Shown piece after piece: positions 49,900 through 50,066 of a DNA stretch of 64,000 bases (its first letter is position 1; each line of letters starts with the position of its first letter). This stretch comes from Reticulascus tulasneorum (lineage: Eukaryota > Ascomycota > Sordariomycetes > Glomerellales > Reticulascaceae). The translations under genes were made by a program, and so were the position numbers. The DNA is taken from assembly GCA_001557505.1 (NCBI GenBank), contig LSAX01000013.1:310001-374000 (forward strand), given 5' to 3'. Under the pieces are notes generated by a model. It saw only the letters and a program-made list of their open reading frames with translations. It ran no database searches and was not told the origin of the DNA.

Positions 49900-50054
49900 G
49901 GTGAGATGGCCGAGGTAAGTAGTTCAGCGGTTCCTGATCAGTTTGATATTGTCTAATATCTTCAAGTTGGTCTAAGGCGCGAGATTAAGGCTTCCCGGAG
50001 GCAATAAATTTTCTCGTCTGGTAACAGGCGTGGGTTCGAATCCCACTCTCATCA
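49900..50054 (+). tRNA. tRNA-Leu(AAG), interrupted by a D-loop insertion and an anticodon intron
   Basis: The acceptor stem GGTGAGA (49900-49906) pairs with TCTCATC (50047-50053, one G-U pair), with discriminator A at 50054. The D-stem GCC/GGC is at 49909-49911 and 49976-49978. The anticodon stem CGAGA (49980-49984) pairs with TCTCG (50012-50016), and the loop reads TT-AAG-G, anticodon AAG at 49987-49989. A canonical-position intron follows base 37 (49991-50010, 20 nt) and starts CTT, complementary to the anticodon. A long variable arm (CTG-GTAA-CAG) makes it class II as expected for Leu. The T-arm is GTGGG-TTCGAAT-CCCAC (box B GGTTCGAATCC). The D-loop is interrupted by 52 nt (49915-49966). 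Without both inserts the product is 83 nt, normal for tRNA-Leu. T5 lies 8 nt downstream. It may be functional or a pseudogene, depending on whether the D-loop insert is removed. Confidence 0.82.
49915..49966 (+). other. 52-nt mRNA-intron-like insertion in the tRNA D-loop
   Basis: Starts GTAAGT, contains CTAAT (49953-49957) nine bases before the terminal AG, and is 52 nt long, the same size and signals as the spliceosomal introns of nearby genes. It splits box A after TGGCCGAG. The insert itself contains TAGTTCAGCGG (49920-49930), which fits the box A consensus. The exact borders are ambiguous by two bases because AG occurs on both sides; the GT-AG placement is used. Confidence 0.75.
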
Positions 50055-50061
50055 ACCTAAA

Positions 50062-50066
50062 TTTTT
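50062..50066 (+). terminator. Pol III terminator of tRNA-Leu
   Basis: Five T residues eight bases after the tRNA 3' end, a normal RNA polymerase III stop signal. Confidence 0.8.

What the first reader, a model, noticed from the sequence alone, without database searches (positions are those of the whole stretch)
49900..50054. tRNA-Leu(AAG) gene with an mRNA-type intron-like insertion in the D-loop
All parts of a class II tRNA are present and pair, plus a normal 20-nt anticodon-loop intron. In addition 52 nt interrupt the D-loop. The insert begins GTAAGT, has CTAAT nine bases before a terminal AG, and has the size of the protein-gene introns around it. Excising both gives an 83-nt tRNA-Leu. Eukaryotic nuclear tRNA introns normally sit only next to the anticodon and are cut by the tRNA endonuclease. 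Removal of a D-loop insert by the spliceosome would be new to me. A known parallel is the mRNA-type intron in fungal U6 snRNA genes, also Pol III transcripts. The insert carries its own box-A-like TAGTTCAGCGG, so transcription may survive the split.
Basis: partly seen in the sequence, partly recalled or inferred. Interest (0 to 1): 0.88.

Follow-up and report, generated by a model that had tools for sequence, protein, structure and literature searches.

The report
Spliceosomal-type introns inside fungal tRNA genes
A fungal transfer-RNA gene is interrupted by an intron that looks like those of protein genes, and so are many other tRNA genes of the same genome, which suggests that this fungus needs its messenger-RNA splicing machine to make some of its tRNAs.

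Summary
The window holds a tRNA-Leu(AAG) gene (49900-50054) with a normal 20-nt anticodon-loop intron plus a 52-nt D-loop insert with GTAAGT, CTAAT and AAG signals. It is not a one-off. Among 33 nuclear tRNA genes of this genome found through their T-arm (42.8 Mb, Sordariomycetes, near Colletotrichum), 14 carry such inserts, 16 in all, in the D-loop, D-stem, 26/27, anticodon stem, anticodon, variable loop and T-stem. All are 52-60 nt; 15 are GT-AG and one is AT-AC; all have a YTRAY motif 10-14 nt before the 3' end. Removing them gives 14 good tRNAs. No uninterrupted copy was found for eight tRNA species tested, including Leu(AAG), Lys(CTT), Arg(ACG) and Ser(AGA); one exists for Asp. The two Lys(CTT) paralogues have identical exons (73 of 73 nt) but diverged introns. 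The inserts lack the bulge-helix-bulge motif of tRNA-endonuclease introns. Best reading: functional tRNA genes that need both the spliceosome and the tRNA endonuclease. There is no RNA evidence here, two of the 16 introns are less certain, and two further genes have unparsed inserts. My searches of open-access papers found no such report.

The parts
49900..49914 (+). tRNA-Leu(AAG) exon 1: acceptor strand and start of D-arm (GGTGAGATGGCCGAG)
   Evidence: read; parsed
49915..49966 (+). 52-nt U2-type spliceosomal-like intron in the D-loop
   Evidence: GTAAGT start, AAG end; structure-only scan: 18 of 5034 excisions fit equally well and 1 of them is GT-AG
49920..49930 (+). A-box-like TAGTTCAGCGG inside the intron, possible substitute for the split A box
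   Evidence: only one among 16 tRNA introns; 181 of 20,000 shuffles
49953..49957 (+). branch-site-like CTAAT; branch A at 49956, 10 nt before the 3' splice site
49967..49990 (+). exon 2: rest of D-arm, anticodon stem 5' strand, anticodon AAG
49991..50010 (+). 20-nt canonical 37/38 tRNA intron (endonuclease class)
50011..50054 (+). exon 3: anticodon stem 3' strand, variable arm, T-arm, acceptor strand
50033..50043 (+). B box GGTTCGAATCC
50062..50066 (+). TTTTT, likely Pol III terminator

Best explanation
The window's tRNA-Leu(AAG) is a working nuclear gene that carries two introns of two classes. The anticodon-loop intron is the ordinary kind cut by the tRNA splicing endonuclease. The 52-nt D-loop insert is a U2-type spliceosomal intron, one of 16 found in 14 tRNA genes of this fungus, so a sizeable part of its tRNA set would have to pass through the spliceosome. 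Shown: the sequence signals, their fit to the tRNA structure, the failure to find uninterrupted copies of eight of the ten sequences tested plus the shared Lys sequence pattern of conserved exons and drifting introns. Inferred: that the spliceosome does the cutting, that the precursors are Pol III transcripts (A and B boxes, T runs), the order of the two splicing steps, and that the A-box-like string inside this intron stands in for the split A box.
For: 14 of 14 spliced products are called as the expected tRNA by ARAGORN. 16 introns, 52-60 nt, GTRNG-type or ATAAG start with matching AG or AC end, YTRAY with its A 10-14 nt from the end; 9 of 200,000 shuffled inserts do this. Scored by cloverleaf fit alone, the seven non-D-loop introns leave 1-7 equally good excisions, exactly one of them GT-AG or AT-AC. 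No uninterrupted copy of Leu(AAG), Leu(TAG), Leu(CAG), Arg(ACG), Lys(CTT), Pro(CGG), Ser(AGA) or Thr(TGT) by BLAST of mature sequences; no other Leu(AAG) by pattern. Lys(CTT) pair: exons 73 of 73 identical, introns 47 of 62 columns. BHB central helix in 1 of 14 inserts (0.77 expected), 0 of 2 more, against 3 of 9 canonical introns (0.42 expected). Introns called in the window's protein genes have like lengths and signals.
Against: No RNA data. I recognised the inserts by eye first, partly by their GT-AG ends; the structural filter came after. Two of the 16 are weak: Lys(TTT) fits 228 excisions as well, Arg(TCT) ties with a Thr(TGT) reading. Two of 33 genes (L047, L086) have long inserts without usable signals. 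Asp(GTC) has uninterrupted copies (L133 with a canonical intron only, L181). Six further tRNA genes with other T-arms show no such intron. Ile(AAT), Arg(TCT), Lys(TTT) were not searched for uninterrupted copies, and strongly diverged copies could be missed. No other fungal genome could be compared. The spliceosome normally acts on capped Pol II transcripts (recalled).
Confidence: 0.87

Rival explanations
1. The inserts are ectopic tRNA-type introns cut by the tRNA splicing endonuclease, as in Cyanidioschyzon and archaea, and the GT-AG ends are coincidental or secondary.
For: Ectopic endonuclease introns exist in a red alga and archaea, and nucleomorph ones without a defined BHB are known (PMC4090602, PMC3978253, passages). 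Canonical introns in nine of the first twelve genes show that the fungus has the endonuclease pathway.
Against: BHB central helix in 1 of 14 (0.77 expected) and 0 of 2 further inserts; all 16 carry spliceosomal signals; one is AT-AC at its only structurally allowed place.
Confidence: 0.06
2. These are decaying tRNA pseudogenes; the inserts are never removed and other tRNA genes do the work.
For: Decayed copies do occur: L047, the inverted Asp copy at C15:800717, the Ala repeat array. Asp has uninterrupted genes.
Against: Exons of both interrupted Lys(CTT) genes identical (73 of 73) while their introns drifted; 14 of 14 spliced products keep the cloverleaf; eight species without an uninterrupted copy, among them tRNAs for frequent codons such as CTC, CTT and AAG.
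Confidence: 0.04
3. The spliceosome removes the inserts, but from Pol II transcripts that contain the tRNA, which RNases P and Z then release; Pol III is not the source of the spliced precursor.
For: Capped Pol II transcripts are the usual spliceosome substrates (recalled). A and B boxes of Pro(CGG) lie 233 nt apart.
Against: T runs follow all 14 genes; 10 of 14 keep a consensus A box at nucleotide 8, which was not used to find them. Fission-yeast U6, whose gene has an mRNA-type intron, is a Pol III transcript (PMC10484740, passages).
Confidence: 0.1

Closest known systems
mRNA-type intron in the U6 snRNA gene of fission yeast
   Same: A spliceosomal intron in a small Pol III transcript (PMC10484740, passages)
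   Different: One spliceosomal RNA gene, intron near its catalytic bases and thought to come from reverse splicing; here many tRNA genes and many sites
mRNA-type introns in nuclear 18S rDNA of fungi
   Same: Spliceosomal introns in a non-mRNA, non-Pol II gene of ascomycetes (title in a reference list seen; details recalled)
   Different: Pol I transcript, not tRNA
Canonical nuclear tRNA introns (37/38)
   Same: Interrupt tRNA genes; the window gene has one too (49991-50010)
   Different: Placed only next to the anticodon, cut by the endonuclease with a relaxed BHB; the inserts here sit elsewhere and lack the BHB helix
Ectopic tRNA introns of Cyanidioschyzon merolae and the Guillardia nucleomorph
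   Same: Introns scattered over the cloverleaf, several per gene (passages)
   Different: BHB motifs or undefined; no report of GT-AG or branch signals in the passages seen
Introners
   Same: A known route to massive gain of spliceosomal introns (mentioned in PMC11782384, passages)
   Different: 13 introns searched had no other near copy in the genome apart from one decayed Asp copy

Membership tests
U2-type spliceosomal intron | 5' splice site GTRNGN (or ATAAG) with matching AG (or AC) end | tested here: met
   16 of 16
U2-type spliceosomal intron | branch motif YTRAY shortly before the 3' end | tested here: met
   16 of 16, A 10-14 nt from the end
U2-type spliceosomal intron | size and signals like those of the protein-gene introns of the genome | tested here: met
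   29 introns called by open-frame rules in the window, 46-120 nt, 14 of them 45-70 nt; 6 calls in the reversed control. The calls are not checked against proteins or RNA
U2-type spliceosomal intron | removed by the spliceosome through a lariat | not testable with these tools
   needs RNA
Functional nuclear tRNA gene | spliced product folds as the expected tRNA | tested here: met
   14 of 14
Functional nuclear tRNA gene | A box, B box and T-run terminator | tested here: inconclusive
   B box in 14 of 14 (but used to find them); T runs in 14 of 14; consensus A box at nt 8 in 10 of 14
Canonical nuclear tRNA intron | placed at 37/38 | tested here: not met
   window insert follows nucleotide 15; none of the 16 lies at 37/38
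Canonical or ectopic endonuclease intron | bulge-helix-bulge with 4-bp central helix | tested here: not met
   1 of 14, 0.77 expected; 0 of 2 more. Positive control weak: 3 of 9 canonical introns
Group I or II self-splicing intron | catalytic core | tested here: not met
   no Rfam match at gathering score in the window; 52 nt is too short for either (recalled)
Introner | many near-identical copies in the genome | tested here: not met
   13 of the 16 introns searched; one further copy, of the Asp intron, in a decayed gene

The most novel reading that the evidence does not exclude
In this ascomycete lineage the spliceosome has become an obligatory second tRNA-splicing pathway: a large share of nuclear tRNA genes, including the only genes found for several frequent codons, carry spliceosomal introns at many positions (even inside the anticodon, and three in one tRNA-Pro(CGG) gene), so that translation depends on spliceosomal processing of Pol III transcripts.
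Probability: 0.78. Interest if true: 0.95.

Novelty: new variant of a known kind. Interest (0 to 1): 0.92.

Why it matters
Nuclear tRNA introns are held to be a separate class, cut by a protein endonuclease next to the anticodon. Spliceosomal introns in working tRNA genes would show that the spliceosome can act on many compact Pol III transcripts, that intron gain is not confined to mRNA, rRNA and U6, and that tRNA supply can hang on the mRNA splicing machine. It would also mean that tRNA annotation misreads such genes: of 11 unspliced genes tested, ARAGORN gave 5 a wrong identity and found nothing in 2. It offers a test bed for intron gain in genes whose exons cannot vary.

Tried and rejected
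Rfam RF00005 over the genome was swamped by mitochondrial-looking copies (63 of 1362 candidates scored) and missed tRNAs found later, so it was not used for counts. A general B-box pattern gave 424 hits against 406 in its control, with only the first 100 listed; some of these were read.

T-run test for Pol III: the 16 tRNA introns have no T run over 4, but the window's mRNA introns of 45-70 nt have none of 5 or more either (0 of 14), so this does not discriminate.

Introner hypothesis: rejected for the 13 introns searched. A shared fold of the introns: the Lys pair shares a hairpin, the rest show no common fold by eye; not pursued.

Two first readings were changed: in L085 from Thr(TGT) with a 66-nt canonical intron to Arg(TCT), in L099 from a 62-nt canonical intron to an 18-nt one plus a spliceosomal one. 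Both are less certain than the rest.

Not counted as intron-bearing: L047 and L086 (long inserts without usable signals). L046, L129 and L178 are degraded or unparsed tRNA-like places. L125 passed the filter but I judge it spurious.

Comparison with other fungi was not possible: no fungal genome collection is held here and the metagenome cap is 0. Viral, phage, plasmid and prokaryote collections were not scanned.

Full report
What is there. The window (G000:C6:310001-374000) comes from an unnamed 42.8-Mb fungal genome in 35 contigs. Its nearest named relatives by protein are Colletotrichum: up to 62% identity for a DUF2434 protein and 85% for trehalose-phosphate synthase/phosphatase, with Verticillium the next named genus at 79%. 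So it is a sordariomycete, probably near or in Glomerellales (order recalled). Spliced, it is an 83-nt tRNA that ARAGORN calls Leu(aag). Unspliced, neither ARAGORN in the tool's default nor Rfam at gathering score reports it.

It is not alone. A BLAST with the gene found one other match in the genome: a second Leu(AAG) gene at C35:1391775 with an uninterrupted D-arm but a different insert, GTAAGA...ACTAAT...TAG, between D-arm and anticodon stem. A pattern for the uninterrupted stretch from D-arm to anticodon of Leu(AAG), with up to 2 mismatches, matches the window gene and four places with 2 mismatches each, fewer than the backwards control (5 and 10); none of the four is called a tRNA or has a T-arm downstream.

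Inventory. I searched for T-arms with four gap-free patterns: GGG..CCC 39 hits, AGG..CCT 59, CGG..CCG 26, TGG..CCA 35. I read the surroundings of all their nuclear hits and of some hits of a wider pattern; hits in repeated, mitochondrial-looking contigs were mostly not fetched. Among 123 distinct T-arm-like places in the loci given to the script, 34 pass a filter on a matching acceptor strand upstream, T8- and A14-like bases and a TTTT downstream. The filter uses no splice signal. One (L125) I judge spurious. Of the other 33, 17 are uninterrupted or have only a short intron at the canonical place, 14 carry mRNA-type introns, and 2 (L047, L086) have long inserts that I could not parse. Six more tRNA genes with other T-arms, seen through other searches, have no such intron: Glu(CTC), Thr(AGT), Trp(CCA), Ala(TGC), Pro(AGG) and a second uninterrupted Asp(GTC). 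The tRNA set is not complete.

The 14 genes and 16 introns. D-loop: Leu(AAG)-1 (window), Ile(AAT), Arg(ACG), Lys(CTT)-1, Lys(CTT)-2, first intron of Pro(CGG), Leu(TAG). D-stem 3' strand: Leu(CAG). 26/27: Leu(AAG)-2. Anticodon stem: Thr(TGT). Inside the anticodon: second intron of Pro(CGG), Arg(TCT), Ser(AGA). Variable loop: Lys(TTT). T-stem: Asp(GTC) and third intron of Pro(CGG). Pro(CGG) thus holds three, plus a canonical intron: 262 bp for a 72-nt tRNA. Lengths are 52-60 nt. Fifteen are GT-AG; the one in Leu(CAG) is ATAAGT...ACTAAC...CAC, the form of U2-type AT-AC introns (recalled). Branch motifs are CTAAC 8, CTAAT 4, TTAAC 3, CTGAC 1, the A 10-14 nt from the 3' end in all 16. Of 200,000 shuffled inserts 9 have all three signals in place.

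Are the boundaries forced by my eye for splice motifs? I scored all excisions of 25-90 nt by cloverleaf fit alone, canonical introns already removed. For the seven introns outside the D-loop, 1-7 excisions score at least as well as the annotated one, and exactly one of them is GT-AG or AT-AC; for Leu(CAG) it is 1 of 5100 excisions and it is AT-AC. The seven D-loop introns are looser (18-35 excisions), each set holding one or two GT-AG cuts; for Arg(ACG) and the first Pro(CGG) intron some other cuts score 0.5-1 point higher. Two introns are weaker cases: Lys(TTT) (228 excisions fit as well, best 0.5 higher) and Arg(TCT) (6 excisions; a Thr(TGT) parse with a 66-nt canonical intron ties; its mature form agrees with Arg(ACG) in 54 of 75 columns and with Thr(TGT) in 48 of 77).

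Are the genes functional? The two Lys(CTT) genes have identical exons (73 of 73), while their spliceosomal-type introns agree in 47 of 62 aligned columns, their canonical introns in 14 of 26 and their 60-nt flanks in 32 of 62 and 35 of 63. GTAAG, CTAAC and TTCAG are kept. Selection seems to keep the spliced product of two genes that are both interrupted. A BLAST with ten joined mature sequences found no uninterrupted copy of Leu(AAG), Leu(TAG), Leu(CAG), Arg(ACG), Lys(CTT), Pro(CGG), Ser(AGA) or Thr(TGT). It did see an uninterrupted Asp copy at 81% identity, so it was not blind to moderate divergence; a more diverged isoacceptor could be missed. Asp(GTC) has that copy and one with only a canonical intron (L133), so the Asp case proves nothing about need. 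Ile(AAT), Arg(TCT) and Lys(TTT) were not tested. In 11 mechanical ORFs of the window (6225 codons) CTC, CTT and AAG run at 30.2, 19.1 and 27.3 per 1000.

Which machine? The central 4-bp helix of a bulge-helix-bulge is complete in 1 of 14 inserts against 0.77 expected from shuffles, and in neither of the two added later, but in 3 of 9 canonical introns against 0.42 expected. Introns called in the window's open frames have like lengths and signals (29 calls, 6 in the reversed control). So the spliceosome is the best candidate; this step is inferred. The 13 introns searched have no other copies in the genome except one in a decayed, inverted Asp gene, so a recent burst of identical mobile introns is not seen.

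Promoter. In 10 of 14 genes the A box at nucleotide 8 fits the consensus even unspliced. The window gene's A box is split, and its intron alone of the 16 contains an A-box-like string (TAGTTCAGCGG, 49920-49930; 181 of 20,000 shuffles hold one). Against a general rule: Ile(AAT) also has a disturbed A box and no substitute; Ser(AGA) and Lys(TTT) miss the consensus without being split. All 14 are followed by runs of at least five T. The B box is intact in all 14, but that is how they were found.

What is known. Passages of two reviews describe nuclear tRNA introns as lying exclusively at 37/38, with exceptions in a red alga and a nucleomorph that are treated as bulge-helix-bulge or undefined introns (PMC4090602, PMC3978253). 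The tRNAscan-SE 2.0 paper treats noncanonical introns as archaeal in the passages shown and has no occurrence of 'spliceosom' (PMC8450103). The nearest precedent is the mRNA-type intron of fission-yeast U6 (PMC10484740, passages); mRNA-type introns in fungal 18S rDNA are another (a title in a reference list). [quoted passage not shown] in the passages shown I saw no spliceosomal tRNA intron named (PMC11782384). Ten searches listed no report of spliceosomal introns in tRNA genes by title or abstract start. The library is open-access PMC only, so this is not proof of absence.

Verdict. The finding is real, broader than reported, and best read as spliceosomal introns in functional nuclear tRNA genes, with both splicing systems acting on one precursor. 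RNA evidence is the missing piece.

Noticed in passing
L101 (G000:C17:3563660-3563950), tRNA-Leu(CAG): The insert in the D-stem begins ATAAGT and ends CAC with ACTAAC before it: an AT-AC intron in a tRNA gene, at the only excision that restores the cloverleaf.
   Followed up: yes
L076 (around G000:C2:1348998), tRNA-Pro(CGG): Three mRNA-type introns plus a canonical intron in one 72-nt tRNA; one of them splits the anticodon.
   Followed up: yes
L047 (G000:C1:1595900-1596700, minus): Gly(CCC)-like gene with a 64-nt insert that starts near GTAAGT but has no usable AG; mismatches in anticodon and T stems. Probably a decayed copy; an intact Gly(CCC) is at L095.
   Followed up: partly
L086 (around G000:C12:1518931): tRNA gene with an insert of about 102 nt in the anticodon loop whose ends are complementary (CCCAAGTGATC / GATCGCTTGGG); anticodon unclear.
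   Followed up: partly
L046 (G000:C34:273300-273850): Asn(GTT)-like 3' part in place, its 5' acceptor strand missing; an inverted copy of the D-arm lies about 200 nt upstream on the other strand.
   Followed up: partly
L065 (G000:C16:1949989-1950490): tRNA-Ala(TGC) followed by a tandem array of 85-bp units, each with a fragment of the tRNA's 3' part.
   Followed up: no
L180 (G000:C15:800450-801300): A truncated, inverted and decayed copy of tRNA-Asp(GTC) with its T-stem intron lies next to the intact interrupted gene; a diverged uninterrupted copy is about 3.6 kb away (L181).
   Followed up: partly
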